The position numbers and the translations under genes are program-made. A stretch of 64,000 nucleotides of DNA from Sinotaia quadrata. Lineage: Eukaryota > Mollusca > Gastropoda > Architaenioglossa > Viviparidae. This document shows positions 610 through 61,175 of the stretch, in pieces (the stretch's first letter is position 1; each line of letters begins with the position of its first letter). The notes beneath the pieces were generated by a model. It searched no databases. It saw only the letters and a program-made list of their open reading frames with translations, and was not told the origin of the DNA. The stretch covers positions 105,727,635 through 105,791,634 of the forward strand of contig CM054180.1 of the NCBI GenBank assembly GCA_028829895.1. The letters are read 5' to 3'.

Positions 610-2712
610 TTAAAATTTCATATTATTTACACTACATTGTGAATTGGAATTTCCATGATTAATTTTGAACAACTGCAGAGTAATTAGTTTCCGTCTCTTT
701 TCATATCTTGTTCGTATCCTACGCTCACGGAGAACAGTTAGGCAGTAGAGAATAGTAGTCAAGGCTGAGCTAAGTGGTAAAACTATGGTTGCCATGGCAA
801 TAGTAATCTCTCTAGTGACATAATTTCCAGTTAACGCGAGAAATCCTAGAATCACGATTGGAAAGCAAGACATGGCGTTAAACAAAACAATAATGCTGAC
901 ACGTTGTGCGATGATGACATCTTGTCGCACAGTGGTCATCTCTGTAAATGACAAGTCTTGTACGCAGATAGCACTGAATATAAAGAGTAATCCAACGATG
1001 TCTGCCGAGATTAAGACACAGTTCAAGATTATCATAATACCATATGAATAAAACTTGCCTTCAAATGTCTGTCTAGTTATCGTCAGAGGACTACATACGT
1101 CCGTCTGACTGTACAAGTTCCAGTGTGACGTCATAGGTAGAAAGGGTACAGAGGCTAGCGCCATACTTACACACCAAGTAACTGCACATACAAAGTGTAC
1201 CGAGCGGTTCTGGAAATGTTTGTGAGCGTGAGGAAAGTAAAACAGACAAACTTGGTCGATCATGAGGAGACAAGTAAGAAAAGTAGACATTTCTTTGGAT
1301 ACCAGAGCCAGGAATCCCGCAAGTTTACACATGGCGCTGTTTTTCCAGGTCACATCTTCCCAGAAATAGTTCTCCCCATACGTCCAGTCTGCCGCGCCAA
1401 TCAGAACAAGGTACACACCCATCAGAAAGTCAGACATGCACAAATGAGTAACAAATGTGTTGTAAGCACGGACATTTGTTGTAAGACTGACTACTCGGTA
1501 GACAAGTGAACTCATGTTTCCTAGTAAAGACAAAATTGCAAAGATTACAAGAAAACGTCTGTACATAAAGGAGGGCAAAAGTGTTCCACAAGAATATATT
1601 TCGTCAGTTGGAGCTTGGCAGTCGGTAATCATTACACCTACAGGCAACATGGCAGGACAGCAGAGCTTATAGTCATCAGTGAAAATTGTCTGCAGTTTGG
1701 TCAGGCCTTGAAACAGGTCACGTGGATACTCTGTGATTGGACAACCACGAATGTCTACTTTACGTAACTTGTTCAGAAGTTTCAAACTCTCCCGTTCTAC
1801 ACTGTCAATACCACTGGACTTCAAGATCAAAGTCTCCAAATTAGGAAATAAGATAAAGGAACTCCCGTTTAGTTCTGGCATATAAACTCCAGACAAGTCA
1901 AGATTGCGTATTTTCGGAAAATTAAATGCAACAAGATTGTCAAAATTAAAAAACGTTTTTATTGGATTCCAGGATAATAATAATGTATTCAGATTTTGTA
2001 AGCCCTGCAGGTGTTTCGGGGTTATGAATGTAAATTTATTATTACTGAGATCTAGCGTTTGTAAATTGTCTAAAACTATAATGTCCATCGTCTTCAGTCC
2101 ACAATGTTCTAGACTCAGATATACTAGGAACGTGTTGTTACTGAAATCACCTGGCGACATGAGAGAATGTCCAGCATTCACATAACGAAGTTCTGGAAAA
2201 TCACGGGCTGGGAATGGCCGGGAACACAAGAAAGCCAGTCCGTGACACGAGCAGGTGTCTGGACATTTAAGGTCACATAGAAGTTCGTCATCGTGTCTTG
2301 GGCACTGGAAAATACCGTCACACACGTGACTGGTATGCAGACACACACTGGACGCCCGACAACGGTAGTAACCAGGACACGTGTAGCTGTCACATTCTGC
2401 TTCGTCTTCAGAACCTGGACAATCGTACACCTTATTACAGCGGACAAAAACAGGCAGACAGTACCCAGTATTGGGACAGAGAAAGTGAGTTTCCGGACAT
2501 CTAATGACTGAGTTGTGACTCTTTGGCTTTTCCTCCACATACGGCTGCATCTTATAACGTCCTTTACCGTCCAGGTGTATCACGGCAGGTGGTGGCAGAC
2601 TTATGAAGGTTTGAAAATGATATAAATCAAGAGGTTTATAGTTACAGAGATCTTCGTCTGAACCATCTACACACTGCTCCACGCCATCACAGAGTTGATT
2701 GATATATACACA
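610..2712 (-). CDS. Gene A exon 5: LDLa-LRR-seven-transmembrane receptor body
   Basis: This 2,103 bp terminal exon starts after a pyrimidine-rich tract and AG (phase 0) with CVYINQLCDGVEQC and ends at TAA (612-610), coding 700 residues. In exon-frame numbering from VEQC: completed LDLa (CVDGSDEDLC), LDLa about 62-97, LDLa about 102-136 (CDGIFQCPRHDDELLC), LRR N-cap (CPDTCSCHGLAFLC), six or seven LRRs about 165-335, a CC..C cap at 341-365 and 7TM 374-652. TM2 carries SDFLMGVYL, as in LGR-type receptors. The TM3 Cys452 and ECL2 Cys530 are present. Positions equivalent to DRY, CWxP and NPxxY read DQV (476-478), SCFP (605-608) and LTTILY (641-646). Paralogous to loci C and D. Confidence 0.93.
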   Translation of the reverse strand, partial: CVYINQLCDGVEQCVDGSDEDLCNYKPLDLYHFQTFISLPPPAVIHLDGKGRYKMQPYVEEKPKSHNSVIRCPETHFLCPNTGYCLPVFVRCNKVYDCPGSEDEAECDSYTCPGYYRCRASSVCLHTSHVCDGIFQCPRHDDELLCDLKCPDTCSCHGLAFLCSRPFPARDFPELRYVNAGHSLMSPGDFSNNTFLVYLSLEHCGLKTMDIIVLDNLQTLDLSNNKFTFITPKHLQGLQNLNTLLLSWNPIKTFFNFDNLVAFNFPKIRNLDLSGVYMPELNGSSFILFPNLETLILKSSGIDSVERESLKLLNKLRKVDIRGCPITEYPRDLFQGLTKLQTIFTDDYKLCCPAMLPVGVMITDCQAPTDEIYSCGTLLPSFMYRRFLVIFAILSLLGNMSSLVYRVVSLTTNVRAYNTFVTHLCMSDFLMGVYLVLIGAADWTYGENYFWEDVTWKNSAMCKLAGFLALVSKEMSTFLTCLLMIDQVCLFYFPHAHKHFQNRSVHFVCAVTWCVSMALASVPFLPMTSHWNLYSQTDVCSPLTITRQTFEGKFYSYGIMIILNCVLISADIVGLLFIFSAICVQDLSFTEMTTVRQDVIIAQRVSIIVLFNAMSCFPIVILGFLALTGNYVTREITIAMATIVLPLSSALTTILYCLTVLRERRIRTRYEKRRKLITLQLFKINHGNSNSQCSVNNMKF

Positions 2713-4480: not shown

Positions 4481-4559
4481 GACTTTGATGAGTATTGCAC
4501 CACAAAGCTACAATTTAGCAGAATGACCCACGTTCCAATGTCTGGTTGAATGGAGCAAG

Positions 4560-4623: not shown

Positions 4624-4689
<66 letters not shown>

Positions 4690-5631: not shown

Positions 5632-6181
5632 CTGCCGGCCACCGCATCTTACTTGTGTCGTCTGGTCACATTTCTTGAAGACACAAAAGTTTTCATCACT
5701 CGAGTCACTGCAGTCGGGCCGATGATCACAGACCAATGTAAATGGCACACTTTCTCCTGAACTTTCACACAAGAAAGATGGCGGAAGTGACGTCAATGGA
5801 GCATTACATATAATATTTCTTTTACCAAAGCAGAGGCTTTTCTCGTCACATATAAAGAACATCTGAGTCACGTGACCGGCTGGGCATTCAAGTAATGTTT
5901 TATTTGATTGCAATATTGGTTTGGTCAGTGTAATGGCTGGTGGAGAAAAGCTATCAAAGGCAAAGCTATAATTAGTGCTTTGATGAAAATTAAATACTTT
6001 CCGTTTCTCGCAGAGAAAGTTAGAAAACAAAAAGTCGAATTTGTTAATAAATATTTCTATTGTAACTGTCATTTGAGTATTAATATTCAGCTGTCCATAT
6101 GACGGTGTGGTAAAATATGGATTTGTGATGTTCAGTAAATATGCAATAGAGTTATCCGCCCATTGCCATGAAACAGCATAC
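5632..6181 (-). CDS. Gene A exon 4: end of C-type lectin-like domain and LDLa modules
   Basis: The exon is 550 bp, with acceptor gtgaaag before GTATGCTG and donor CGGCAG-GTAAAC, entered in phase 2 and left in phase 0. It begins YAVSWQWADNSIAY, the WxW core of a C-type lectin-like fold, and reaches the closing Cys at NFLCEKRK. Next come a Cys-rich unit (CPAGHVTQMFFICDEKSLC) and a clear LDLa end (VCDHRPDCSDSSDENFC) with the calcium-binding acidic residues. The last codons (CDQTTQVRCGGRQ) are the first third of another LDLa, completed by exon 5, so this intron splits a domain in phase 0. The locus B exon 37747-38293 has the same borders and almost the same length. Confidence 0.88.
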
Positions 6182-7590: not shown

Positions 7591-7739
7591 TTAATTAATT
7601 AAGTTTGTTTCAACAATTATGCGTGTATGTTGGAGACAGTGAGCAGAGACAGTATTCACAGTTTCAAATTATCGCTTAAGTACCGTTTTTATCATTGTCA
7701 TTTAAAAAATAATGAAGGCACTTATTGCTTGTTCAGCCA

Positions 7740-7890
7740 TGTATACACACTCACTCCTAATGTATACACACTCACTCCTAATGTATACACACTCACTCCT
7801 AATGTATACACACTCACTCGTAATGTATACACACTCACTCGTAATGTATACACACTCACTCCTAATGTATACACACTAACTCCTAATGTA
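7740..7890. repeat. 21 bp tandem repeat, about 7 copies
   Basis: Unit TGTATACACACTCACTCCTAA. Because 21 is a multiple of 3 it translates as a VYTLTPN repeat, but nothing suggests it is coding. Confidence 0.85.
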
Positions 7891-7919
7891 TATTTTCAAA
7901 ATTCTAAGTATGAACATTG

Positions 7920-8078
<159 letters not shown>

Positions 8079-8240
8079 GAGCTATGATTGCTCATGTTAT
8101 GCACATGATTATCCCCCATGTATAAACAAATTAAAACTGTTATTATTATTTTTCTGCATTATTATATAAAGTAATATCAACAACAAATCTTATTGCTTAT
8201 GGTACGAGGTTGATTGTACATTCAACAATATGACACTTAA

Positions 8241-8666
<426 letters not shown>

Positions 8667-8779
8667 ATAATTGTGAAAGAAAGTGTTTTAATAGTGGCTG
8701 TCAGGGCTGTTATGAACCGTTAACAAGCAAACCTTCGTGAACACTTTGGATCCTCTATCAATAGAGGTAGTGCTAGCCA

Positions 8780-12514: not shown

Positions 12515-13208
12515 ATTATTGGCAATCCTTGCTTAAAAGAGAATACCCCTAGTGGTATATTACTTCCAATCATTCCTGATGTTAGTAATTCTGAGAAGTA
12601 TTTCCATTTTGTCCACCTGCTTAGTATGGCCAAACTTGAGTTGTACTTCGAACACAGGGCCACTCCTTCATCTCTACTTAACTTTGTTCTTGTCACTTCA
12701 TATCGAAAACAGCTGTCTTCAACAGTTATGTATCCTACGCCACACTTATCACTCGTGTAAGGACAGGACAGTTCGTCTTCACCATTCAGGCACTGGGGAG
12801 ACATGTCACAAGAAAAGTGATGATTTATGACAGTTTGACTGAGTCTTGAACAGTTCCACTTGCCGTCAGGCATTTCTTCTGGAAGTGTCGACTCGTGAAA
12901 AGAGAAGTTGAGTCTGAAACCAATGTGTAATATTCCCTTTCTACTTTTAAAATGCAAGAGGAATGCTCTCCCTTGTGGTATAACAATAGGACTATAAGAA
13001 TCAAGCCACGAATTCCATATGTCATCATGACCATTGAAATGAGAGTTATAGATGACTAGACCGTATTTATAAGAAGGAACTTTAATCTGTAGTATTCTGA
13101 AAACACTTATTATAACCGAGTTGTTTGGAGGTGTTTCTACTCTCAACCATCTGTCAATATCGGCGTTGAATGTTGATTTCCTTTTTCCCCTAGCGAGCTC
13201 TATGAAAC
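12515..13208 (-). CDS. Gene A exon 3: second CUB-like region, LDLa and start of C-type lectin-like domain
   Basis: The exon is 694 bp, entered in phase 1 (ccag before GTTTCATAG) and left in phase 2 at an AT-GTAATT donor. The first about 105 residues are CUB-like (FIELARG, DRWLRVETPPNNSVIISVFRI, DIWNSWLDSYSP, GILHIGFRLNFSF). An LDLa module follows (WNCS, HHFSCDMSPQCLNGEDELSC). Then a C-type lectin-like domain begins (CGVGYITVEDSCFRYE, ALCSKYNSSLAILSRW). The split codon at the donor restores Met, and the lectin fold continues in exon 4 with a WxW-type motif. Locus B has the same donor position and phase (GAAT-GTAATG). Role: extracellular ligand-binding portion; ligand unknown. Confidence 0.85.
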
Positions 13209-13640: not shown

Positions 13641-13960
<320 letters not shown>

Positions 13961-17426: not shown

Positions 17427-17943
17427 CGTGTTTGGGAGACATATAGGTGATCTCTAATTTAGGCTGCAATACTTTAAGCACTCCAGAGAAGTGTACGGAG
17501 ATAAAAAAAGCTTTCAGTAAAGCTGGTTGAAATTCAAATATCACGTGATTGGTAGCACTTCTCACAAAAGAGACACTATCTGTATGTAACAAAAATGATG
17601 GGTAGTCTGGACTATCATAGACAAAAATGTCATGATTGAGAAACCAATTTCTGCGGACATTCATTATCATGTAGGTCGGCAAGATCACCTCGACTACAGT
17701 TGAACAGTTTTGCTGCAAAAAGTCTTTTTTTCTTCTTCTTTCTTCTGAAATGCTCTTCGGGGGTTTGTAATTAAAATTTATAATTCCTTCCTCAGCACAA
17801 AACTGTAATTTCTCGAGACTTGAATCACACATGTCAGTGTCGTTTTTTGAAATCGTGATGTTGATGTAAACCGGGCATTTCAGCAAAGAATATTGCGTGA
17901 TGTTTTGCTCCGTAACGTATGGTAGTTTACTTATGTCAGAAAT
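17427..17943 (-). CDS. Gene A exon 2: first CUB-like ectodomain region
   Basis: The exon is 517 bp, with an AG acceptor just upstream (tcttag before ATTTCTGACATAAG) and a GT donor (GTAAGA) after the first base of a glycine codon, so it ends in phase 1. The protein (ISDISKLPYV... to TYMSPKH-G) has several N-glycosylation sequons, cysteines near its start (LKCPVY, DMCDSS, QFCAEE) and a late beta-rich stretch. That pattern resembles a diverged CUB domain, but I cannot assign the fold by sequence alone. It joins exon 3 as PKH-G-FIELARG, a typical start of a second CUB-like unit. Extracellular, after signal peptide removal. Confidence 0.75.
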
Positions 17944-32776: not shown

Positions 32777-33192
32777 GTTATGTTGATGTTTTCGTTTAAC
32801 ACGTCAGCACTGCTAGAGCAGACTCCTGAGAGAAGGTGGAACTGTTCTTTGCCGATCTGGGATGATGTTAAACAACACCTGTCTTGTAATCTGATTGAGG
32901 AATGCATAAATGGCGAGGATGAACAAAACTGTCCTCTGCTGACCGGCACGTGCGAGCCTGGTTATTTCAAGGCCGGAGGAAGCTGTTTCATGTTCATTCT
33001 GACCAATCAAAAGATGTCGTGGGAAACCGCTGAAGACATTTGCCATCAGAGAGGGAGTATACTGGCTTCACTTAGCACCTGGGAAAAGTATACAGAAGTC
33101 TTTAAAGTATTGTCCACACACTTGCCTACGCGTTTTCAAGGTCAAAGTGTCTTTCTGGGACTCAGAGCTATTGCATCAGGGAAAGGAGCAAT
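32777..33192 (+). CDS. Gene B, first recognisable exon: LDLa and start of C-type lectin-like domain
   Basis: It starts after ataacag (AG at 32775-32776) and ends AAT before GTAATG (phase 2), the same donor as gene A exon 3. Content: MLMFSFNTSALLEQ, aligned without gaps to the end of gene A's second CUB-like region, then WNCS...HLSCNLIEECINGEDEQNC (LDLa) and CEPGYFKAGGSCFMF, AEDICHQRGSILASLSTWEKY, VFLGLRAIASGKGAM (C-type lectin-like). An in-frame TAA lies just upstream and the pyrimidine tract is poor, so the true 5' border is uncertain. No signal peptide or complete CUB-like exon was found on this strand in the preceding 11 kb. Confidence 0.8.
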
Positions 33193-37746: not shown

Positions 37747-38293
37747 GTATCGATGGATGACTGAGTGGGCTGACGAAACTGTGGCTTACACTGTTTCATA
37801 TGAATTGGTAAAGATGTTGCCAAAGGAAGCGTTGTTTGTGTTGTTTGTATCATCTAATAAAGGCAGAGTCCGTTTTGTCAGAATTATTGCAGAAGTAAAT
37901 TTGAACCTTCTTTGTGAGAGAAAAATACATTCGGAAAATACACTGACTGCTAATGTTAGTACTTTAATTGACTTTGTCATTCAGAAAAGCAATAGAACTT
38001 TAAATACATACCAAGTGCCAAAACACAAATACGTTCAGTGTCCAGCCGGTCACGTACAGCAGACATTTCTAGCGTGTGACGTCAAGAGTGCTTGTTGGGG
38101 TACAGATCATGCTGGGAGTACAACCTTTCTCACGTCACTTCCACCATCTTTTTCTTGTTCAAACAAAAGAGAGATAGTGCAGTACACTTTCATCTGTGAC
38201 TTTCGCTCTGATTGCAGCGATGAAAGTGATGAAGATTTCTGCATTTTTCCTCAATGCTGGGAACAAATGAAACACGACTGTGGTAACTTTCAG
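37747..38293 (+). CDS. Gene B exon: end of C-type lectin-like domain and LDLa modules
   Basis: Acceptor CTGTCAG and donor TTTCAG-GTAACG; 547 bp, entered in phase 2 and left in phase 0, the same as gene A exon 4 (550 bp). It begins YRWMTEWADETVAYTVSYE, the WxxxW core of the lectin-like fold, and closes it at LLCERKIHSE. Then come CPAGHVQQTFLACDVKSACWG and FICDFRSDCSDESDEDFC (LDLa). It ends CWEQMKHDCGNFQ, the first third of an LDLa completed by the next exon (CFTSSERCDGLEQC). Extracellular. Confidence 0.9.
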
Positions 38294-40929: not shown

Positions 40930-42987
40930 TGTTTCACAAGCAGCGAGCGTTGTGATGGCCTAGAGCAGTGTGTGAATGGTGCAGATGAAAAGGACTGCCC
41001 ACACAGTGTAAATATAAAAAGCAAAACACCATTTTTGAGAGCGGCGTTTACAAGCATGCCACCGCCTGCAACCATAAATGTGAACCGTTATACAGAAATG
41101 TATATGACTGAAAGTGTAAACTGCCCAGAAACGCACTTCTTCTGTCCTGAAACTGGTTACTGTATGCCAGTGTTTCTGATTTGTAACGGCGTTTTTGACT
41201 GTCCAGGTCACGAGGATGAGGTAGGTTGTGACAGCTACACGTGTCCTGGCTTCTACCGCTGTCGTGCTTCCAGAGTGTGCATGCACTTAAGTCACGTGTG
41301 TGACGGAATACTACAGTGTCCTCAACGCGACGATGAACTGTTGTGTAACGTTACCTGTCCAGAAAACTGCACTTGTCATGGCCTGGCCTTTGTCTGCACT
41401 CAACGATTCCCAGTTAATGAATTTCCGGACCTTCGTTATGCGGACGTGGCCAACACAGGCATGACATTAGCAAACTTTAAAAACAATTATTTCTTAATAT
41501 ATCTGAATTTGAGGAATTGTGGAATAAAAAATCTCGATCATTCTGTAATGAATAATTTGCGAATTCTTGATCTCAGCAGTAACAAATTAATTAGTATAAC
41601 GTCTTCTCATTTGCAAGGATTTAAACGTCTTCGGGACTTGTCATTAGCAGACAATCCACTAAAATATATTTTCCCAAAACAAAACTTTCATTCAACATCT
41701 TTTCCAGTTGTTCGGAATTTAAATATGTCTCGTGTGTACATGCAGGAACTAGACACAAGTGTATTGAGCATCTTTCCAAACCTTCACACACTGACAATAC
41801 TTGACAGCGGCATTGAAAAAATTGTAGTGGAGGGATTTCAATCACTGAAAAGACTTCGTCAGTTGGATGCCCGTGGTAACCCGGTTGATATTTTCCCCGG
41901 TAACATTTTTAACGGAGTTGAAGAGCTGGAAACAGTTTTGGCTGATAATTTTAAATTATGCTGTGATGCCACACTTCCGGCAGGTTTCCTTCTGAAAAAC
42001 TGTCATGCGCCATCAGATGAGATTTCTTCATGTGAAGACCTATTGGTCTCCGATATTTACCGTTTTTTTCTCGCTTCGTTTGGTCTCTTGACGTTGGTAG
42101 GAAACTTTAGTAGTTTTATATACCGAGTATTTATAAATAAAACAGATAGTCAGTATGGCTATGGGGTGTTTGTTACACATTTGTGTGTGTCGGATTTTCT
42201 CATGGGCGTGTATCTGGCGATGATTGGCGTAGCGGACTGGACATTTCGAGGGAATTACCTCTGGGAAGACTTAACCTGGCGAAAGAGTATCACTTGCAAA
42301 CTGGCTGGCCTCATATCTCTCTTGTCCAACGAGGTGTCGGCGTTCATCGTTTGCCTTATCACCCTCGACAGATTTCTCGTTCTTCGTTTTCCGTTAAGTC
42401 GAATTCATTTCCGGAAACAATCAGCATGGATTGCTTGCACCATGGCTTGGTTGGCAGGTATGGTGTTAGCCGCTTTGCCACTGACCACCTTTATATCAGA
42501 TGGACTTTTTTTCAGTCAAACTGCTATTTGCGTACCATTACCTATCACGAGAAAAACCTTTAAAGGTCAAGGCTACTCATTTGGCATCCTGGTGGTGTTG
42601 AACTTTGTTCTAGTCCTGCTGGTCGGCGTTGGCCAGCTCTTCATCTATTGGTCAATACACATGAACAGTATACTGAGTAGCCAAACGACAAAAAGGTCAA
42701 AGGACACGATTATTGCTCGTAGATTGATTTCTGTCGTTTTGTTTGATTTTTTCTGCTGGTTTCCGATTGGTCTTCTGGGACTTCTTGCATCAGGTGGATG
42801 GCCCATTCCCAGCACAGTTAATATTCCTATAGTGATCTTTGTACTGCCTCTGAACTCTATGTTGAACCCATTTCTCTACACAATGAACATCATTCATGAA
42901 CGCTGGGTGCGTGCCAGTAAACGACTTGAGGAGAAACGTATTCTACTGGAATTTGAAAGACAGGATCGAAGTACAATTTATGATTAG
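40930..42987 (+). CDS. Gene B terminal exon: LDLa-LRR-seven-transmembrane receptor body
   Basis: This 2,058 bp exon begins after the acceptor CTTCTAACCAG in phase 0 with CFTSSERCDGLEQCVNGADEKDC, completing an LDLa, and ends at TAG. Two further LDLa (CPETHFFCPETGYC, CDGILQCPQRDDELLC), an LRR N-cap (CPENCTCHGLAFVC), about six LRRs and a 7TM follow. The switch motifs are canonical or near so: TLDRFLV at the end of TM3, FDFFCWFP in TM6 and LNPFLY in TM7; TM2 has SDFLMGVYL. About half of the residues match loci A, C and D by eye. The three exons seen total about 1,006 residues. AATAAA at 43110-43115 is a possible polyadenylation signal. Likely a surface receptor able to couple to G protein; ligand unknown. 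Confidence 0.93.
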   Translation, partial: CFTSSERCDGLEQCVNGADEKDCPHSVNIKSKTPFLRAAFTSMPPPATINVNRYTEMYMTESVNCPETHFFCPETGYCMPVFLICNGVFDCPGHEDEVGCDSYTCPGFYRCRASRVCMHLSHVCDGILQCPQRDDELLCNVTCPENCTCHGLAFVCTQRFPVNEFPDLRYADVANTGMTLANFKNNYFLIYLNLRNCGIKNLDHSVMNNLRILDLSSNKLISITSSHLQGFKRLRDLSLADNPLKYIFPKQNFHSTSFPVVRNLNMSRVYMQELDTSVLSIFPNLHTLTILDSGIEKIVVEGFQSLKRLRQLDARGNPVDIFPGNIFNGVEELETVLADNFKLCCDATLPAGFLLKNCHAPSDEISSCEDLLVSDIYRFFLASFGLLTLVGNFSSFIYRVFINKTDSQYGYGVFVTHLCVSDFLMGVYLAMIGVADWTFRGNYLWEDLTWRKSITCKLAGLISLLSNEVSAFIVCLITLDRFLVLRFPLSRIHFRKQSAWIACTMAWLAGMVLAALPLTTFISDGLFFSQTAICVPLPITRKTFKGQGYSFGILVVLNFVLVLLVGVGQLFIYWSIHMNSILSSQTTKRSKDTIIARRLISVVLFDFFCWFPIGLLGLLASGGWPIPSTVNIPIVIFVLPLNSMLNPFLYTMNIIHERWVRASKRLEEKRILLEFERQDRSTIYD

Positions 42988-46775: not shown

Positions 46776-48291
<1,516 letters not shown>

Positions 48292-50398
48292 TTAACATTT
48301 CAAATTATTCAAACTACATTGTAAATTGGAATTTCCGTGATTAATTTTGAACAACTGCAACATAATTCGTTTCCGTCTCTTTTCATCTCTTGTTCGTATC
48401 CCGCGCTCACGGAGAACAGTTAGGCAGTAGAGAACAGTAGTCAAGGCTGGGCTGAGTGGTAAAACAATGGTTGCCATAGCAATAGTAATCTCTCTAGTGA
48501 CATACTTTCCAGTTAACATGAGTATTCCTAGAATCACGATTGGAAAGCAAGACATGGCGTTAAACAAAACAATAATGCTGACACGTTGTGCGATGATGAC
48601 ATCTTGTCGCACAGTTGTCATCTCTGTAGATGACAAGCCTTGTATGCAGATAGCACTGAATATAAAGAGTAATCCAACAACGTCTGCCGAGATTAAGACA
48701 CAGTTCAAGATTATCATAATACCATATGAATAAAACTTGCCTTCAAATGTCTGTCTAGTTATCGGCAGAGGACTGCATATGTCCGTCTGACTGTACAAGT
48801 TCCAGTGTGACGTCATAGGTAGAAATGGTACAGAGGCTAACGCAATGCATACACACCAAGTTAGTGCACATACACACAAAGTGTGCCGAGCGGTTCTGGA
48901 AATGTTTGTGGGCGTGAGGAAAGTAAAACAGACAAACTTGGTCGATCATGAGGAGAGAAGTAAGAATCATAGACATTTCTTTGGATACCAGAGCCAGGAA
49001 TCCCGCCAGTTCTCACATGGCGCTGTTTTTCCAGACCACACCTTCCCATAAATAGTTCTTCCCATACGCCCAGTCTGCCGAGCCAATCAAAACAAGATAG
49101 ACACCCATCAGAAAGTCAGACATGCACAAATGAGTAACAAATGTGTTGTAAGCACGGACATTTGCTGCAAGACTGACTACTCGGTAGACAAGTGAACTCA
49201 TATTTCCTAGTAAAGATAAAATTGCAAAGATTACAAGAAAACATCTGTAGATAAAGGAGGGTAAAAGTGTTCCACAAGAATATATTTCGTCAGTTGGAGC
49301 TTGGCAGTCGGTAATCAAATCACCCGCAGGCAGCATAGCAGGACAGCAGAGTTTATAGTCGTCAGTGAAAATGGTCTGCAATTTGGTCAGGCCTTGAAAC
49401 AAGTCACGTGGATATTTTGTGATTGGACAACCACGAATGTCAACTTTACGTAACCTGTTCAGAAGTTTCAAACCCCCCCGTTCTACACTTTCAATGCCAC
49501 TGGACTTCAAGATCAAACTCTCCAAATTAGGAAACAAGATAAAAGAACTCCTGTTTAGTTCTGGCATATAAACTCCAGTCAGGTCAAGGTTGCGTATTTT
49601 CTGAAAGTTAAATGCAATAGGATTGTCAAAATAAAAAATAGTCTCGAAAGGATTCCCGGCTAATGATAATGTATTCAGATTTTGAAAGCCCAGCAGGTGT
49701 TTTGGAGATATGAATCTTAATTTATTATTGCTGAGATCTAGCGTTTGTAAATTTTCTAATACTATGATGTCCATCGTCTTCAGTCCACAATGTTCTAGAC
49801 TCAGATATACTAGGTACGTGTTGTTACTGAAGTCACCTGGCGTCATGAGAGAATGTCCAGCATTCACATAACGAAGTTCTGGAAAATCACGGGCTGGGAA
49901 TGGCCGGGAACACAAGAAAGCCAGTCCGTGACACGTGCAGGTGTCTGGACATTTAAGGTCACACAGAAGTTCGTCATCGTGTCTTGGGCACTGGAAAATT
50001 CCGTCACACACGTGACTGGTGTGCATACACACTCTGGATGCCCGACAACGGTAGTAACCAGGACACGTGTAGCTGTCACATTCTGCTTCGTCCTCATGTC
50101 CTGGGCAGTCGAACACTTTGTTACAGCGGACAAAAACAGGCAGACAGTACCCAGTATCCGGACAGAGAAAATGAGTTTCTGGACATCTAATGACTGAGTT
50201 GTGACTGTTTGGCTTTTCCTCCACATAAGGCTGCATCTTATAACGTCCTTTACCATCCAGGTGTATCACGGCAGGTGGTGGCAGACTTATGAAGGTTTCA
50301 AATTGATATAAATCGCGAAATATATAGTTACAGAGATCTTCATCTGAGCCATCTGCACACTGCCCCACTCCATCACAGAGTTGAGTGATATATACACA
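48292..50398 (-). pseudogene. Locus C: terminal-exon copy of the GRL101-like receptor, disabled
   Basis: The copy starts at the same AG acceptor as genes A and D (phase 0, CVYITQLCDGVGQC) and runs through LDLa, LRR and TM1-TM2 in one frame. The TM3 cysteine codon (TGT in A, 1327-1329) is then TGA at 49013-49015. A 4-base ACAC insertion at about 48,869-48,878 shifts frame after NRSAHFVC. The rest (TM4-TM7 and tail) stays readable in its own frame to the stop at 48292. The rest of the sequence is very close to D, so the inactivation seems recent. No matching upstream exons were found between 50.4 and 64 kb. It is not a retrocopy, since intron sequence upstream of the acceptor is retained. Confidence 0.88.
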
Positions 50399-51997: not shown

Positions 51998-52399
51998 ATT
52001 TTGAACAATGATGACCTAATATTATATTTATATGTACTTACCATTATCAATGTCTACTATTCAATGTACGCTAATCGACTGTTGTAACATTTAATAAATG
52101 AATTGTGTTATAAAATGATTTTTTAAAATTTAATTTTTTTATTTAAAAACCTATTTTGGAAGAGAAATATTAACAAATATTGCCTAATAATGTTACAAAA
52201 ACGTAATCGATTTAGCTATAAGATTGGATTTTTAAAAATCGATTTAGATAAAAAAAACCTGATCCGATTAAATAAAACGGATGTCATTTTCAAATTTAGC
52301 AGTGCAAAATTGTTCTAAATCAGTTGAAAAATCTTAGACAACTTTCAAAAAAATTGTTTTTGTGACGCAGTGTAATCTTACAATATCGCTCGACTTCAG
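51998..52399. other. Spacer, possible 3' end of the preceding element
   Basis: AT-rich. Contains TTTAATAAATGA near 52,088 and a partly self-complementary AATCGATTTAG / TAAATCGATTTTT region. No gene. Confidence 0.35.
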
Positions 52400-54500
52400 T
52401 CCTGTCCACTATGAGATTTTATACTCCCATCTTTTCCTCTGTCTTCCTCTCCTTCTCCGTCCTTGCCACAGTACCTTGCATGATTATCTTGGCACGCCCT
52501 GTTGATCTTGTGACAGGCTCATATAATTTCATTTTGCATTTTTTCACAATGGGCAATAGCTTTGCTCAGGGCCCAGTGAGTTGCCTAATTCTGTTTCCCA
52601 TTTCCTCATTTGTGACATGATCTCTATACGAAATGCCAAGAAACCTTCGAAAGCATCTCATTTCAGTAGCTTGTATCCTCTATTCGAGATCCACTGTGAG
52701 GGTCCATGACTTACAGACATATAAAAGCACAGATATAACCAAGAAGCGCATCAGTCTGATCTTTGAGCTGACTGAAATGTTTCTATCTTTCAAAACTGTC
52801 GTCTGCCTTGCCATTGCTGCTTTGTCATCACAATCCTGGACAATATTTCTGTTTTTGATCCCCCATCTGTCACGATGGCTTATAAGTAATTTATTAACTA
52901 TTTCCAATTTCTGATCACCAGTCATGATGTCATTGCCAATGTCACTGTTGTTGTTGGTCATCAATTTGGTCTTCTCTGCACTGATTTACACACCAAAAGC
53001 AGTAGCTATCCTGTCCAGTTTTTCCACCAATTGAGCTAGCTCCTCCTCATTTCCTGCAAGGCCATCGATGTCATCAGCAAAGCATAAATTCATTATTGTT
53101 CTGCCTCCAATACTGACATTTCCTTCATGGTATTCCAGAGCATCTATCACGATTCTTCATCATGATAGATGTTGAAGAGAATAGGCAAAAGTAAGCAGCT
53201 TTGTCTGACTCTCACTGTTGTCCTGAACCAATTCCCCATTTGGCTTTTGAAGCAGACTGCACTGGTGACCTTGCTGTAAAGGCTTTATATGACTTTGATC
53301 AGGTTGGCATTGATGCTGTACAGCGTCATGGTGGACTGAAGGGCTGCATGCCACACCCTATCAAACACCTTCTTAAAATATACAAAGACTTGATAAAGGT
53401 CTTGTTGGTGCTGAAGGTACTTCTCACATAGCAGTCTCAGATTAAAAATCTGTTCACTTGTGCTTCACCCTGGTCTGAAGACTGCCTGTTCTTTAGCTGG
53501 ATTTCCTCTGCCTTCGGCTTCAGTCTGTTTAATATGATCTTTAGCATGACTTTGCTTGGGTGGCATATAAGACTTACTGTATGATAGTTCTGACATTGTT
53601 GCAAATTGCCTTTTTCTGGAGTGTTGGCCATTCTCCTGTCTGCCAGATCTTATTGCAGATTCAGTAGGGTGCTTATCATGGTTTCTCCCACTTCTTGGAC
53701 TAATTCTGCAAGGATGTTGTCTATTCCTGCTGCCTTTCCCATTTTCATTGATTTCACTACATTTTCTACTTCTTCTCGGAGGATGGGGTAGTTGCCAGTA
53801 TTGGTCACTGGTGAGGTGTTGAGTATGTCTGGATCCCCTGTATGTCTGTGGTTGTATATGTTTGAGCAATATTCTGTCCATCTCTTAAGAATGTCTTGGT
53901 CTTCTGTAAGACAATTCCTTCCACTATCTTGAATGATGAAGGATGCAGTGTTTTATACTGGTGAGGTCAGTTGGTATGCTTTTTTGCTATTATTTTTCTT
54001 TAGATATTTTCTATATCTTTACACTGGTCTTCAATCCGTCTTCTTTGCCTTTTTTCATGCTTTTCTTGATAATCTGATTATTTTCCCTAGATTGTTTTGC
54101 TCCTTGTACTTCTGATTTCTTCTTATTTAGCTCTCGACGCTTGTCACACAGATCAAGGATGTCAGCTGTAACCCAATGTTTGTTTGATCATATATGTTTG
54201 CCAAGGATCTCATTGGCTGTTTGGATCACTGAGGTGTTAAATATGTCAATCAATATGTCTGTGTCTGTATACTCCGCAGTAAAAAGTAGCAGTGATGCAA
54301 ATTCGAAAGGCTTCAGATACCTCTGGGTCTTTTACTTGTCAAGATTGAACTTGATTCTTGTGGGGCCTTGCTTGTTGACTTTCTTTAGACATAGTCGGAG
54401 GGTCATCATCACTAAGTCATGGTCACTTTCAATGTCTGCTCCTGGGAAGCGTCTTATCTTGGCAATGTTTACACTGGTATGGAAACACCTCTTCACCATG
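52400..54500 (-). mobile_element. Non-LTR retrotransposon (LINE) remnant, endonuclease end through RT
   Basis: Minus-strand order: KRCFHTSVNIAKIRRFPGAD, IESDHDLVMMTLRL (end of endonuclease domain), KVNKQGPTRIKFNLDK, a long degraded linker, YPILREEVENVVKSMKMGKA, AGIDNILAEL, EKGNLQQCQNYHTVSLICHP, SKVMLKIILNRLKPKAEEI (RT fingers), FADDIDGLAG (near 53,070, catalytic motif), KLMTNNNSDIG, LEIVNKLL, KDRNISVSSKIRLMRFL, SWTLTVDLE and YRDHVTNEEMGNRIRQL. Stops and frameshifts are frequent, so it is inactive. The order matches a common animal LINE of the endonuclease-RT type; the clade is not assigned. Confidence 0.85.
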
Positions 54501-54559
54501 ATATAACCAACAAACTAAACAAACAAAAAAAAAAACCAAACAAAAAACAACCAAACAAA

Positions 54560-55450
54560 TATGGGACAAAACAAAACAAATAACGGGTACAGGCGAGAAG
54601 TAAAGCATGATTCCACCACTAATAACATACCAAAAATCAAAAACACAAACTACCTCAGAAAAAGAATTTGCAGAGATATTGGCAGACACATTTCAAGCCA
54701 ACAGGAACAACAAACCATAAAAAACCAAACATCTCCAAACAATCATAAAGATACTAAAATCACTAGAAAAAACCAACAACAAAAATTAAAAAAAATATCT
54801 AACCAAAATAAACACACCCATCATAGTAGTAGAAGTCAAACACAATAAAAAAAAGTGTCAGATCAAGATAAACTAACTTACCATTTCCTCATGACTACCA
54901 TACAACATTTTAAATAACTTAACACAACTTTTCAACAAATATGGAAAACAAGCGAAATACCAACACTTTAGAAATACGCAAATATAATACCGATACCAAA
55001 ATCCGACAAGACCACACACAACCAAACTCATACAGACCAATCTCCTTACTCCCAGCTTTAGCAAAACACTAGAAACAATAGTAAACAAGAGACTGACACA
55101 CTACCTAGAAACGAAAAACCAGTGCAACATGGATTCAGACCCAAAAGATTAACATAGATGCCACCAACAGACTTATGGACAACTTCATGATAGACAGACT
55201 ACAAAGGGACAACATCATGATGACAGACTACAAAGGGACAACATCACGATAGACAGACTACAAAGGGACAACATCATGATAGACATACAAAGGGACAACA
55301 TCATGATAGACAGACTACAAAGGGACAACATCATGATAGACAGACTACAAAGGGACAACATCATGATAGACAGACTGCAAAGAAAACACTCAGTAGTAAT
55401 CTTCAAAACAAAAAAAATACAAAACCAAATTTTTAAAAGAAAAACAATAT
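54560..55450 (+). mobile_element. Jockey/CR1-like LINE reverse-transcriptase fragment
   Basis: Plus strand, scattered over frames: KEFAEILADTFQANRNN, then IIPIPKSDKT, LETIVNKRLTHYLETKNQ, HGFRPKRLT, IDATNRLMDNFMIDRLQR and QRKHSVVIF. These fit the start of a jockey-like RT (IPKxxK, KxLExxxNxRLxxxLE, GFRPxRST). The RT is interrupted by the 30 bp tandem array and lacks the catalytic region downstream. Opposite orientation to the preceding LINE. Confidence 0.65.
55170..55383. repeat. 30 bp tandem repeat inside the LINE fragment, about 6.5 units
   Basis: Unit ATGATAGACAGACTACAAAG followed by GGACAACATC. One unit is 29 bp and one 27 bp. The unit corresponds to RT codons around MIDRLQR. Confidence 0.88.
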
Positions 55451-56118
55451 TGGATAAATACTTTATACTTTGTGTGTATAAGAAAACCGCCTTGCAACCT
55501 TGTTTGACAAAACCTATGAAAAAATACACGTGTGTTGAACTTTATATAAGGGCCCACCCACGTTCTTTGTACCGGGAACTGGACCTACTCTAGGCGGCCC
55601 TGATTGCCTTCATAATACACAACGCAGCCACAGTTCGAACCGACAGTAGTTTTCCATTTATCTTGAAGAAGGTTACATAACGCTTTGGAAGATTAAAACA
55701 ACATTCAAAAGAAATTGCGCTTAAACACTCAAAGGGAAGGTATCTTTATTATCACCACATTTACATTGTGCACACACGTCTGAGTTCTATTAATAACATT
55801 TCTACAAAGATCACGTGATTCGCATGCTCTAGTGCAGTCAAACAAGAAATGGTTGAAAATCTAAATTTTTTCGACTTTTCAGTAGATTCAGATATGGTTT
55901 AGAAATTAATTTGTTCAATGGTTTGATTTACATGGTTACACGATTTAATATAAAATGGATTGGAAACATATTTCAGTAAATAATATTTACACTTGAATAA
56001 CCCCTTATTAAAATTACTACCAACTTACTCAAGCCGTGCAGAGTTATAAATATTTACACTTGAATAACACTATATTAAAATTATTACCAACTTACTCAAG
56101 CCATGTTTGATATATGAT
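55451..56118. other. Spacer
   Basis: No gene. A duplicated stretch (TATTTACACTTGAATAACxCC/ACxxTATTAAAATTA(C/T)TACC) occurs at about 55,986 and 56,049. Possibly the 3' part of the jockey-like LINE at the left. Confidence 0.35.
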
Positions 56119-56637
56119 GCACAGTTTGTTATGAGCGCTGTCTGAGGCACAGTTTGCTATAAGTGCTGTTTGATGCACAATTTGCTTTGAACGCTGTTTG
56201 ATGCACAGTTTGCTATGAGCGCTGTCTGATGCACAGTTTGCTATGAGCGCTGTCTGATGCACAGTTTGCTATGAGCGCTGTCTTGTGCACAATTTGCTTT
56301 GAGCGCTGTCTGATGCACAGTTTGCTATGAGCGCTGTCTGATGCACAGTTTGCTATGAGCGCTGTCTGATGTATTGTTTGCTATGAGCGATGTCTTGTGC
56401 ACAATTTGCTATGAGCGCTGCCTGATGCACAGTTTGCTATGAGCTCTGTCTGATGCACAATTTACTCTGAGCGCTGTCTGATGCACAGTTTGCTATGAGC
56501 GCTGTCTGATGCACTGTTTGCTATGGGCGCTGTCTGATGCACAGTTTGCTATAAGCGCTGTCTGATGCACAGTTTGCTATGAGCGCTGTCTGATGCACAA
56601 ATTGCTATGAGCGCTGTCTGATGTATTGTTTGCTATG
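56119..56637. repeat. 28 bp tandem repeat, about 18.5 copies
   Basis: Unit GATGCACAGTTTGCTATGAG followed by CGCTGTCT, with few point changes. It ends directly at an (ATCT)n array. Confidence 0.93.
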
Positions 56638-56643
56638 AGTAAA

Positions 56644-56831
<188 letters not shown>

Positions 56832-56936
56832 GTGTTACAACAAAAGGGCACAAGACTTTCTGTCCTAGCTTACCAGAGACGTGTTACTTTATCAAAAGAC
56901 AGCTTAAGTTTGGGAATCAATCCATCGCTCTTCAAA

Positions 56937-56943
56937 CACACAC

Positions 56944-57000
<57 letters not shown>

Positions 57001-57050
57001 GCACATGCACACACGCACATGCACATGCATACACTTAAACACACATACAC
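56937..57050. repeat. (CA)n microsatellite and CA-rich tail
   Basis: Pure CA to about 56,996, then CACGCACATG variants. Confidence 0.9.
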
Positions 57051-57880
57051 ACACATGCATGCACTCTTTTCTGCTAACGGTCGTTTGCTTGCTACACGAT
57101 AATAAAAGTACATATTACAAAAAGCAAAACAAACACGATCCCTCAAGAAAGCAAAAGATCAAACAAATTAAACGACCTAACAAAATAAAAAATAAGAAAT
57201 ACATTAAATAAAATAAACAAACAAATAGAGATAATTTCTTTAATTTTAGTTTATACTTTAGTCTGGCTTAACAAACTATATTAGTCTTATGTAAACGTTT
57301 GATTTGGATCTGGCAGGATAGAGTAATTTTGTCTGATAAACTAATGTGCAAATTATGAACACAACATTAGCATGCAACACTCCTCTAAAACATTCAAACA
57401 ACACAACACAAAGAGACAGAAACTCTTTAACTTTATACCTCGGACATTTTAAAAGATTAATCTCTAACAGGTTCGAAGAATTTTACAATTTAGTTCAAGC
57501 AATGTTTTACCCGAATAATTTGAAACATTCATATGAATGAGAAAGCAATTTTTTCTTTCCAATAAAACGACTTTCTAATGTATCATTAACTTACACACGA
57601 ATATAAATTTACAGACACCAGCTGTTATATAATTATGTTATGAACGAGGTTTTAATTAACACATAAGAGTCATTAAGTACATAGTGATGCATCGTTTCTT
57701 GTAATACACTTGAAAATACATGTATCCATGAATCTACACTACTTATAACACATTCCGTTTTCCTGCAAGAGCCTGAAAAATATCTGTATCAATTGTTACT
57801 CCAAATCTGATCCTAGAAATCGGTACACATAAGATTAGCTGCAATCACACTGTGCAAGTGCGATTACATTGTCATTGTGT

Positions 57881-58291
57881 GAGTTGATAATATTTGTTCT
57901 CTATTGAGTGCTGTCTTAGTATAAATAACACGTGAGTTGATAATATTTGTTCTCCTTTGAGTGCTGTCTTAGTATAAATAACACGTGAGTTGATAATATT
58001 TGTTCTCCTTTGAGTGCTGTCTTAGTATAAATAACACGTAATATTTGTTCTCCATTGAGTGCTGTCTTGGTATAAATAACACATGAGTTGATAATATTTG
58101 TTCTCCATTGAGTGCTGTCTTAGTATAAATAACACGTGAGTTGATAATATTTGTTCGCCATTGAGTGCTTTCTTAGTATAAATAACACGTGAGTTGATAA
58201 TATTTGTTCTCCATTGAGTGCTGTCTTAGTATAAATAACACGTGAGTTGATAATACCTGTTCTCCATTGAGTGCTGACTTATTATAAATAA
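57881..58291. repeat. 53 bp tandem repeat, about 7.5 copies
   Basis: Unit GAGTTGATAATATTTGTTCT followed by CCATTGAGTGCTGTCTTAGT and ATAAATAACACGT; one unit lacks about 8 bp. Locus C has only about two diverged units (47,500-47,610). Confidence 0.88.
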
Positions 58292-58788
58292 CACGTGAAG
58301 CCTATTCTTACTGATGATGAGCTCTTATGATTAAAACTTATATTTAACTTTGTCCACAATTGTACTGAAATGCAGAAAAAAGATAATGAAAAGAACATTT
58401 TAATTAACCATGACTGGATGTCTATGTTAAAATAAGAATAATAAATAAATTTTAACCACCAGTTCGAATATATTGTACTTTAAAAATATAAATAAGATGA
58501 GAACTGTTATGGATGTAGATTGTAAAACCGACATAATTTAACTTCCAGGAAGATTTTGAAAGAGCAAATTGAAACATTAATATGAAAGAATAATTTAATA
58601 AAAGCCTGTTACGTTACACTTACTTACTTCATACTACAGATGTATATATCTTATGTACTATTATATACGATGTTTTCCAAACTAGTTAATGTCCAAAACA
58701 AAAATAAGTTTGAAAAATTGTTGTTGCCCGCCATACTGTTCTGGAAATGTTCTCTTGGCCAGAAAAGGTGGGATACTACTGGGTTAAG

Positions 58789-58935
58789 GTATTTGACTGA
58801 TGATGTAAGAATCCTATTTGACTGATGACGTAAGAATCTTATTTGACTGATGATGTAAGAATCCTATTTGACTGATGATATAAGAATCCTATTTGACTGA
58901 TGACGTAAGAATCTTATTTGACTGATGACGTATGT
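58789..58935. repeat. 25 bp tandem repeat, 6 copies, downstream of D
   Basis: Unit TATTTGACTGATGACGTAAG followed by AATCC/T; three units carry TGACGTA. Present once at locus A (about 448-475) and once at C (about 48,129-48,152). Confidence 0.88.
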
Positions 58936-59072
58936 GTAATAATATAAACCTACGTCAAACTTTATTAGTACAGAAGTGTTAATTACGGAAAATAAATCAT
59001 TTGCGAGGCTGAGAAGTGTTGTAGAAAGTAATTATTTAACGTAATTCACTGCTTGCGTAATGTTAATCAGGA

Positions 59073-61175
59073 TTAAAACTTCATATTATTTACACTATAT
59101 TGTAAATTGGAATTTCCAGGATTAATTTTGAACAACTGCAGCATAATTCGTTTCCGTCTCTTTTCATCTCTTGTTCGTATCCCACGCTCACGGAGAACAG
59201 TTAGGCAGTAGAGTACAGTAGTCAAGGCTGGGCTAAGTGGTAAAACTATGGTTGCCATAGCAATAGTAATGTCTCTAGTAACATACTTTCCAGTTAACGC
59301 GAGCATTCCTAGAATCACGATTGGAAAGCAAGACATAACGTTAAACAAAACAATAATGCTGACACGTTGTGCGATGATGACATCTTGTCGCACAGTTGGC
59401 ATCTCTGTAGATGACAAGCCTTGTATGCAGATAGCACTGAATATAAAGAGTGATCCAACGATGTCTGCCGAGATTAAGACACAGTTCAAAATTATCATAA
59501 TACCATATGAATAAAACTTGCCTTCAAATGTCTGTCTAGTTATCGGCAGAATACTGCATACATCCGTCTGAGTATACAAGTTCCAGTGTGACGTCATAGG
59601 TAGAAAGGGTACAGAGGCTAGCGCAATACATACACACCAAGTTACTGTACATACAAAATGCGCCGAGCGGTTCTGGAAATGTTTGTGAGCATGAGGAAAG
59701 TAAAACAGGCAAACTTGGTCGATCATGAGGAGAGAAGTAAGAAACATGGACATTTCTTTGGATACCAGAGCCAGGAATCCCGCCAATTTACACATGGCGC
59801 TGTTTTTCCACGCTACATCTTCCCAGAAATAGTTCTCCCCAAACGTCCAGTCTGCCGCGCCAATCAGAACAAGGTACACACCCATCAGAAAGTCAGACAC
59901 GCACAAATGAGTAACAAATGTGTTGTAAGCACGGACATTCGTTGTAAGACTGACTACTCGGTAGACAAGTGAACCCATGTTTCCTAGTAAAGACAAAATT
60001 GCAAAGATTACAAGAAAACGTCTGTAGATAAAGGACGGTAAAAGTGTTCCACAAGAAGATAGTTCGTCAGTTGGAGCTTGGCAGTCGGTAATCAGTACAC
60101 CTGCAGGCAACATAGGAGGACAGCAGAGTTTATAGTCATCAGTGAAAATGGTCTGCAGTTTGGACAGGCCTTTAAACAGGTCACGTGGATATTTTTTTAT
60201 TGGACAACCACGAATGTCAACTTTACGTAACTTGTTCAGAAGTTTCAAACCCTCCCGTTCTACACTTTCAATGCCACTGGACTTCAAGATCAAAGTCTCC
60301 AAATTAGGAAACAAGATAAAGGAACTCCCGTTTAGTTCTGGCATATAAATTCCAGACAAATCAAGGTTGCGTATTTTCGGAAAATTAAATGCAGTAGGAT
60401 TGTCAAAATAAAAAATAGTCTCTAATGGATTCCCGGCTAATAATAATGTATTCAGATTTTGAAAGCCCTGCAGTTGTTTCGGAGTTATGAATCTTAATTT
60501 ATTATTGCTGAGATCTAGCGTTTGTAAATTGTCTAAAACTATGATGTCCATCGTCTTCAGTCCACAATGTTCTAGACTCAGATATACTAGGAACGTGTTG
60601 TTACTGAAGTCACCTGGCGTCATGAGAGAATGTCCAGCATTCACATAACGAAGTTCTGGAAAATTACGGGCTGGGAATGGCCGGAAACACAAGAAAGCCA
60701 GTCCGTGACACGTGCAGGTGTCTGGACATTTAAGGTCACACAGAAGTTCGTCATCGTGTCTTGGGCACTGGAAAATTCCATCACACACGTGACTTGTGTG
60801 CAGACACACACTGGAAGCCCGACAACGGTAGTAACCAGGACAGCTGTAGCTGTCACAATGTGCTTCGTCCTCATGACCTGGACAATCGTACACCTTATTA
60901 CAGCGGACAAAAACAGGCAGACAGTACCCAGTATCCGGACAGAGAAAGTGAGTTTCCGGACATCTAATGACTGAGTTGTGACTGTTTGGCTTTTCCTCCA
61001 CATAAGGCTGCATCTTATAACGTCCTTTACCGTCCAGGTGTATGACGGCAGGTGGTGGCAGACTTTTAAAGGTTGTAACTTTATAATTCGCTCTAGGTTT
61101 GTAGTTACACAGATCTTCGTCTGAGCCATCTGCACACTGCTCCACGCCATCACAGAGTTGATTGATATATACACA
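59073..61175 (-). CDS. Locus D terminal exon: LDLa-LRR-seven-transmembrane receptor body
   Basis: An intact 2,103 bp exon, exactly the length of gene A exon 5. It begins at an AG acceptor in phase 0 (CVYINQLCDGVEQC) and ends TAA. The order is the same as in A: completed LDLa (ADGSDEDLC), two LDLa, LRR N-cap, LRRs, CC..C cap, 7TM and a short basic tail (RTRDEKRRKR). The class A switch positions read IDQV, SCFP and LTTVLY, as in A. Exons encoding the remaining ectodomain are not in the 2.8 kb to the window edge; in gene A the preceding exon is 2.9 kb away, so they may lie just outside. Whether D is a gene or an orphan exon is open. Confidence 0.9.
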   Translation of the reverse strand, partial: CVYINQLCDGVEQCADGSDEDLCNYKPRANYKVTTFKSLPPPAVIHLDGKGRYKMQPYVEEKPNSHNSVIRCPETHFLCPDTGYCLPVFVRCNKVYDCPGHEDEAHCDSYSCPGYYRCRASSVCLHTSHVCDGIFQCPRHDDELLCDLKCPDTCTCHGLAFLCFRPFPARNFPELRYVNAGHSLMTPGDFSNNTFLVYLSLEHCGLKTMDIIVLDNLQTLDLSNNKLRFITPKQLQGFQNLNTLLLAGNPLETIFYFDNPTAFNFPKIRNLDLSGIYMPELNGSSFILFPNLETLILKSSGIESVEREGLKLLNKLRKVDIRGCPIKKYPRDLFKGLSKLQTIFTDDYKLCCPPMLPAGVLITDCQAPTDELSSCGTLLPSFIYRRFLVIFAILSLLGNMGSLVYRVVSLTTNVRAYNTFVTHLCVSDFLMGVYLVLIGAADWTFGENYFWEDVAWKNSAMCKLAGFLALVSKEMSMFLTSLLMIDQVCLFYFPHAHKHFQNRSAHFVCTVTWCVCIALASVPFLPMTSHWNLYTQTDVCSILPITRQTFEGKFYSYGIMIILNCVLISADIVGSLFIFSAICIQGLSSTEMPTVRQDVIIAQRVSIIVLFNVMSCFPIVILGMLALTGKYVTRDITIAMATIVLPLSPALTTVLYCLTVLRERGIRTRDEKRRKRIMLQLFKINPGNSNLQYSVNNMKF

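What the first reader, a model, noticed from the sequence alone, without database searches (positions are those of the whole stretch)
610..61175. Class A GPCR switch motifs lost together in A, C and D but kept in B
Aligned by eye, B has LDRF at the end of TM3, FxxCWFP in TM6 and NPFLY in TM7. A and D have IDQV, NxxSCFP and LTTxLY, and the readable parts of C agree. The arginine of DRY, the CWxP tryptophan and the NP of NPxxY are replaced at once, while the TM1 GN, the TM2 aspartate (SDFLMGVYL), both disulfide cysteines (in A and D) and the whole ectodomain are kept in an open frame. Random decay would not spare everything else, so these may be a receptor subfamily with non-canonical signalling, a decoy or co-receptor role, or a binding function without G-protein coupling.
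Basis: partly seen in the sequence, partly recalled or inferred. Interest (0 to 1): 0.78.

Follow-up and report, generated by a model that had tools for sequence, protein, structure and literature searches.

The report
Snail receptors missing their activation switches
Two neighbouring snail receptor genes have lost the internal switch residues that such receptors normally use to signal, yet their frames and outer binding parts have stayed under selection, so they probably bind something without signalling in the usual way.

Summary
A (610-2712) and D (59073-61175) are last exons of gastropod GRL101-like LRR receptors in which R3.50, D6.44, C6.47, W6.48, N7.45, N7.49 and P7.50 are all replaced; B keeps them; C shares the state but is a pseudogene. 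Of positions at least 90% conserved in 233 relatives and kept by B, A and D both lost 0 of 70 in the ectodomain but 17 of 69 in the 7TM part. The stem before A/D evolved about 2.6 times faster than B in the 7TM part and 0.9 times in the ectodomain. Since the loss, A-D omega is 0.45 (2dlnL 16.8), with no stop where neutral drift predicts about nine. This is not random decay. Cautions: solved relatives signal without R3.50 (RXFP1) or W6.48 (TSHR, LHCGR); 6 of 233 relatives changed two or more motifs; one shared origin with such relatives is not rejected. Best reading: a tandem subfamily of switch-less LRR receptors that bind ligand without normal G-protein activation; a new variant of a known kind. 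Function, expression and species were not testable.

The parts
610..2712 (-). Gene A, last exon (e4): LDLa repeats, LRR region, switch-less 7TM, stop. Acceptor TAAG|TGT.
   Evidence: ORF; Pfam LDLa and LRR hits but no 7tm_1 at E 0.01; motifs; acceptor read by eye
5632..6181 (-). Gene A exon e3: second half of a C-type-lectin-like region and an LDLa
   Evidence: tblastn to B e3; LDLa hit; GT/AG borders read by eye
12515..13208 (-). Gene A exon e2: CUB-like stretch (by eye only), LDLa, first half of a C-type-lectin-like region
   Evidence: tblastn to B e2; borders by eye; LDLa below cut-off
17427..17943 (-). Gene A exon e1 (CUB-like by eye only; no Pfam support)
   Evidence: ORF; borders and phase match e2 by eye; no relevant Pfam match
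32777..33192 (+). Gene B exon e2 (LDLa-like and first half of a C-type-lectin-like region); start read by eye
37747..38293 (+). Gene B exon e3 (second half of the C-type-lectin-like region, LDLa just below cut-off)
40930..42987 (+). Gene B last exon: LDLa, LRR and a canonical 7TM (LDRF, CWFP, NPFLY)
   Evidence: Pfam 7tm_1 78.9 bits; motifs; acceptor
48292..50398 (-). C: pseudogene copy of the A/D exon, same switch-less state, stop codon at 49013-49015 and a 4-base frameshift, no upstream exon found
59073..61175 (-). Gene D, last exon, switch-less 7TM; no upstream exon found before the window end (61272-64000)
   Evidence: ORF; motifs; AlphaFold2 model with seven helices; acceptor

Best explanation
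A and D (with the pseudogene C) are tandem members of the gastropod GRL101-like LRR receptor family in which the signal-transmission core of the 7TM bundle (TM3, TM5, TM6, TM7) was dismantled in a common ancestor, probably after the split from a B-like canonical receptor. The ectodomain, disulfides, TM1/2/4 and reading frame were kept, and selection still acts. Most likely they display or internalise a ligand at the cell surface without normal G-protein activation, as decoy, scavenger or co-receptor. Shown: the losses, their place in the protein, the compartment-specific rate shift, purifying selection after the loss. Inferred: failure to couple to G proteins, and the binding role.
For: R3.50 is kept in 228 of 233 relatives, W6.48 in 221, N7.49 in 227, P7.50 in 232; A and D have none of the four. 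Losses shared by A and D at positions B keeps: 17 of 69 in the 7TM part, 0 of 70 in the ectodomain (p 2e-6); within helices 0 of 19 in TM1/2/4, 16 of 36 in TM3/5/6/7 (p 0.0004). Stem length 0.99 against 0.37 for B in the 7TM part, 0.43 against 0.49 in the ectodomain; ratio of ratios, bootstrap median 2.97, 2.5-97.5 percentiles 1.79-5.48 of 60 replicates, topology fixed. A-D omega 0.448, 2dlnL 16.76 against 1. No stop between A and D, where neutral simulation gave a mean of 8.9 and 0 of 2000 runs without one. Model of D: seven confident helices; nearest solved folds TSHR, FSHR, LGR4. Gene A has four exons with GT/AG borders read by eye. In chemokine decoys the constraint shifts are biased to the intracellular side in four of five groups (PMC3405870, abstract and passages); C5L2 lacks DRY and NPxxY and no coupling was detected (PMC2697321, abstract and passages).
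Against: RXFP1, the closest solved relative by sequence and solved with Gs, has K at 3.50; TSHR and LHCGR have M at 6.48, so those two losses alone do not prove loss of coupling. D3.49, P6.50, Y7.53 and D2.50 are kept. Omega of ectodomain and 7TM part does not differ (2dlnL 0.3-0.5), so the 7TM part is not shown to be freer than the ectodomain now; the 7TM/ectodomain change ratio of A-D (0.74) is reached by 5 of 18 non-overlapping canonical pairs. The last 177 codons give omega 0.85, not different from 1. In C5L2, one substitution in the DRY position was reported to raise coupling to a co-transfected G protein (PMC2697321, passage), so such a receptor need not be wholly dead. No expression data, ligand, or orthologue from another species.
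Confidence: 0.5

Rival explanations
1. Rewired signalling: A and D still signal, through a G protein with an altered mechanism or through arrestin or another partner, with new residues doing the switching.
For: Selection on TM1-7 persists (omega 0.505, 2dlnL 4.39, p 0.036), though with the tail included it is 0.593 (2.90, p 0.089). Relatives signal without R3.50 or W6.48. A viral receptor with DTW in place of DRY signals (PMC3405870, passage).
Against: P7.50, N7.49 and D6.44 are gone too; P7.50 is kept in 232 of 233 relatives and NP in the five solved chains aligned (RXFP1, LHCGR twice, TSHR twice). A short tail with few Ser/Thr (by eye) gives little for arrestin.
Confidence: 0.25
2. Relic in slow decay: signalling was lost and the copies are on the way to pseudogenes, C being further along.
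For: C is a pseudogene. A and D differ at 5 of 58 family-conserved 7TM positions, while 0 of 62 canonical pairs of like divergence differ at 5 or more, the maximum being 3. Last 177 codons omega 0.85.
Against: Omega 0.45 overall, open frames, intact splice borders in A; neutral drift would have given about nine stops. C itself has omega 0.28-0.32 to A and D in the ectodomain, so its break is recent.
Confidence: 0.15
3. The switch-less state is one old lineage shared with other switch-degenerate gastropod relatives (P0153, P0169, P0179, P0171 and others), not a local event.
For: A tree with A, D and 15 such relatives held together is not rejected (log-likelihood 13.1 lower, p-AU 0.23); in the 7TM-only tree A/D fall beside some of them (support 0.778).
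Against: A+D+B form a clade in the whole-exon tree (FastTree 0.989; SH-aLRT 97 with 17 switch columns left out) and in the ectodomain tree (0.86); the replacements differ (KP against TT, LG against SC).
Confidence: 0.1

Closest known systems
GRL101-like LRR/LDLa receptors of gastropods (named relatives in Littorina, Nucella, Batillaria, Pomacea, Babylonia); GRL101-like cluster SudRes2 of Biomphalaria sudanica
   Same: LDLa-LRR-7TM, here with upstream C-type-lectin-like and LDLa exons, in a tandem cluster; A/D group with B inside the family (PMC12297450, abstract and passages)
   Different: Relatives keep the switches (228, 221, 227 and 232 of 233 at R3.50, W6.48, N7.49, P7.50); A and D keep none of these four. 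The paper proposes G-protein activation; the passages that I saw say nothing of motif loss.
Relaxin receptor RXFP1 and glycoprotein hormone receptors
   Same: LRR ectodomain and 7TM; the best solved sequence match of B is RXFP1; D6.44 and NPxxY shared with B
   Different: These signal through Gs; RXFP1 already has K3.50 and TSHR/LHCGR M6.48, but none loses NPxxY in the five alignments shown
LGR4
   Same: Same fold class; said to work mainly through Wnt/beta-catenin rather than G proteins (PMC4548225, start of abstract in the search listing)
   Different: A separate LGR type (recalled); motifs of LGR4 were not examined here
Atypical chemokine receptors and C5L2/C5aR2
   Same: Decoys, several with degraded DRY, CWxP or NPxxY sites, changes biased to the intracellular side in four of five groups
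   Different: No LRR ectodomain; two of the five chemokine decoy groups (CCRL1, CXCR7) keep a typical DRY; binding is shown there, not here

Membership tests
GRL101-like LRR receptor | LDLa repeats followed by LRR and a 7TM region | tested here: met
   Pfam LDLa and LRR in A, B, D; seven helices in the D model; Pfam 7tm_1 itself matches B only
GRL101-like LRR receptor | Clusters with proteins named GRL101-like | tested here: met
   Listed relatives named GRL101-like are 32-44% identical to A or D; tree
Canonical class A GPCR | DRY arginine, CWxP tryptophan, NPxxY | tested here: not met
   A and D: Q, C, TTxxY; no 7tm_1 hit at E 0.01
Decoy / atypical receptor (by analogy) | Degraded activation motifs with the outer, ligand-binding part kept | tested here: met
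   17 of 69 conserved 7TM positions lost against 0 of 70 in the ectodomain; ligand binding itself is not shown
Decoy / atypical receptor (by analogy) | Binds ligand, does not activate G proteins, internalises | not testable with these tools
   Needs cell assays
SudRes2 cluster of Biomphalaria | Same locus and genus | not testable with these tools
   Window species unnamed; own-genome search did not complete (13 calls, first, last); no named heterobranch protein among the listed hits

The most novel reading that the evidence does not exclude
Snails carry a tandem, selected subfamily of switch-less LRR receptors that act as decoys or display receptors for a pathogen or peptide ligand, the invertebrate counterpart of atypical chemokine receptors, inside the GRL101-like type of cluster linked to schistosome resistance in Biomphalaria sudanica.
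Probability: 0.2. Interest if true: 0.75.

Novelty: new variant of a known kind. Interest (0 to 1): 0.52.

Why it matters
A GRL101-like cluster was recently linked to schistosome resistance in a snail vector, and that work proposed G-protein signalling (PMC12297450, passages). If some members have lost the signalling core but keep selected binding domains, the functional model changes from signalling receptor to decoy, scavenger or attachment site. It also gives a clean case of compartment-specific loss in a receptor, with a canonical neighbour (B) as control.

Tried and rejected
Rejected: plain pseudogene reading of A and D (omega, open frame, splice borders). Rejected: C as a third working receptor. 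Not borne out: that 7TM omega now exceeds ectodomain omega; that the 7TM/ectodomain change ratio of A-D is outside the range of canonical pairs (0.74, reached by 6 of 62 overlapping and 5 of 18 non-overlapping pairs). Not shown: that the A/D loss is independent of other degenerate relatives (p-AU 0.23). A second AU test with six relatives was started, did not finish and was not repeated. One search counted loop positions twice in one Fisher test; the corrected value (p 0.025) is. One search used trimmed ends and positions shifted by five; its counts (26 of 82 lost each) are replaced. One search was a first tally on 197 relatives, replaced on 233. C-type-lectin identity is weak: the B pieces score 18.8 bits against a cut-off of 22.6, the A pieces have no match. 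Stem omega against B was not estimated, and codon tests on relatives were not possible (no DNA). Eight literature searches listed no title or abstract start on switch loss in GRL101-like receptors; one search listed all 20 papers that hold the word GRL101, of which I opened one (passages); the other lists were in part cut short (for example 15 of 156, 10 of 10,156); only open-licence PMC papers are held and supplements could not be read.
Full report
What is there. The window holds four related last exons of LRR/LDLa receptors: A (610-2712, minus), B (40930-42987, plus), C (48292-50398, minus) and D (59073-61175, minus). A and D are 89% identical in protein and 46-47% identical to B. Pfam finds LDLa and LRR in all four, but 7tm_1 only in B (78.9 bits). 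Gene A has three further exons upstream with GT/AG borders that I read by eye and whose phases fit; gene B has at least two. No upstream exon of D was found before the window end (61272-64000). C has no such exon in 50450-59072, a TGA at the TM3 cysteine codon (49013-49015) and a 4-base insertion: it is a pseudogene.

The motifs. The finding is correct and understated. Against B, A and D replace R3.50 (Q), D6.44 (N), C6.47 (S), W6.48 (C), N7.45 (S), N7.49 (T) and P7.50 (T). The relatives are the 233 proteins in the capped lists of three searches (best 120 of 392, 160 and 912). R3.50 is kept in 228, W6.48 in 221, N7.49 in 227, P7.50 in 232, D6.44 in 213. Seventeen of 233 changed at least one of the three motifs, six changed two or more, one (P0179) all three, by other residues; one of the six (P0182) has gaps there. 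The Ballesteros-Weinstein labels are my own, set from the motifs. The C pieces agree with A and D, so the loss came before the A/C/D duplications.

Where the losses lie. I took alignment positions at least 90% conserved in the relatives and also kept by B. Lost in both A and D: 0 of 70 in the ectodomain, 17 of 69 in the 7TM part (Fisher p 2e-6). Within helices of the B model (TM7 cut at residue 688 by me): 0 of 19 in TM1, TM2 and TM4, 16 of 36 in TM3, TM5, TM6 and TM7 (p 0.0004). By half: 11 of 28 in the intracellular half, 6 of 41 in the extracellular half and loops (p 0.025, corrected). Conditioning on B makes B look canonical by construction; it does not affect the contrast between the two parts of A and D. 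Without that condition A keeps 72 and D 73 of 76 ectodomain positions (B 71), and A 55 and D 54 of 75 7TM positions (B 68).

Rates. With the FastTree topology fixed on 40 sequences, the stem leading to A/D is 0.99 in the 7TM part (B 0.37) and 0.43 in the ectodomain (B 0.49). The ratio of ratios has a bootstrap median of 2.97 (60 replicates, 2.5-97.5 percentiles 1.79-5.48). So the acceleration is seen in the 7TM part only. It assumes that A/D and B are sisters.

Selection after the loss. Because A and D share the loss, their divergence follows it (gene conversion apart). Pairwise codon likelihood: omega 0.448 over 703 codons (2dlnL against 1: 16.76), 0.348 in the ectodomain (16.73), 0.505 in TM1-7 (4.39, p 0.036), 0.593 for 7TM plus tail (2.90, p 0.089), 0.853 in the last 177 codons (0.16). 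Separate omegas for the two parts do not improve the fit (2dlnL 0.3-0.5). Neutral simulation gives a mean of 8.9 stops between A and D, with 0 of 2000 runs free of stops; for the 7TM part alone 3.1, with 4.6% of runs free; for the last part 1.6, with 18% free.

Comparison with canonical pairs (62 overlapping pairs of 42 relatives, 86-94% identical). The 7TM part changes 0.35 times as fast as the ectodomain (median); for A-D it is 0.74. That is high but not outside the range: 6 of 62 pairs, and 5 of 18 non-overlapping pairs, reach it. A-D differ at 5 of 58 conserved 7TM positions, while 0 of 62 pairs differ at 5 or more (maximum 3). Against the pooled rate this is p 9e-5, but against the rate of the pairs with most changes only 0.09; the contrast with the A-D ectodomain (1 of 68) is p 0.09. 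So the 7TM part is still selected; that it is held less strictly than in canonical receptors is suggested, not proven.

Tree. A+D+B form a clade (FastTree 0.989 on 231 of 236 sequences, five gappy rows dropped; SH-aLRT 97 on 64 chosen sequences with the switch columns removed). In the 7TM-only tree A/D move to long-branched relatives, and a tree uniting A/D with 15 other degenerate relatives is not rejected (p-AU 0.23). A local origin is likelier but not proven. The window's species is not identified, and a planorbid origin is a guess.

Structure. The D model has seven confident helices and an LRR domain (mean pLDDT 79.5; the LDLa stretch is below 50 in part); nearest solved folds are TSHR, FSHR and LGR4. 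By sequence the nearest solved relative of B is RXFP1.

Mechanism. In class A receptors R3.50, the 6.44-6.48 core, the sodium-pocket asparagines and NPxxY couple ligand binding to opening of the cytoplasmic side (established knowledge, recalled). Losing nearly all at once should uncouple the two. But RXFP1 has K3.50, and TSHR and LHCGR have M6.48; the departures that matter most are D6.44N and the loss of NP. In four of five chemokine decoy groups the changed sites are biased to the intracellular side, and two of the five keep a typical DRY (PMC3405870, abstract and passages). C5L2 lacks DRY and NPxxY, showed no coupling in that study even with the motifs of C5aR inserted, and removes its ligand; another group is cited there as raising coupling with one substitution (PMC2697321, abstract and passages). 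I therefore favour a binding receptor without normal G-protein activation (0.5), then rewired signalling (0.25), slow decay (0.15) and an old shared lineage (0.1).

Context. A GRL101-like cluster (SudRes2) is associated with schistosome resistance in Biomphalaria sudanica, and its authors propose G-protein activation (PMC12297450, abstract, outline and passages). Whether this window is that locus cannot be told.

Noticed in passing
48292-50398: C looks like a recent pseudogene: ectodomain omega to A and D 0.28-0.32, yet it has a stop, a frameshift and no upstream exon found.
   Followed up: yes
P0153, P0169, P0179, P0168, P0171, P0182 (relatives): Six of 233 relatives changed two or three switch motifs by different residues (P0182 has gaps there); P0179 has no precomputed 7tm_1 domain either. 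The family may produce switch-less members repeatedly.
   Followed up: partly
P0009, P0137, P0141, P0206, P0228: Relatives from Nucella and Littorina, named hypothetical proteins, carry a precomputed Lectin_C domain, so a C-type lectin on such receptors is not confined to the Biomphalaria SudRes2 genes.
   Followed up: no
19260-19829: ORF with a weak hAT dimerisation match below the cut-off (E 0.1), perhaps a transposon remnant.
   Followed up: no
7603-8740, 13571-13973, 46489-46935: Long tetranucleotide repeats read as SIYL in the ORF list.
   Followed up: no
51337-51738: Open frame of 133 aa without Pfam match, between C and D.
   Followed up: no
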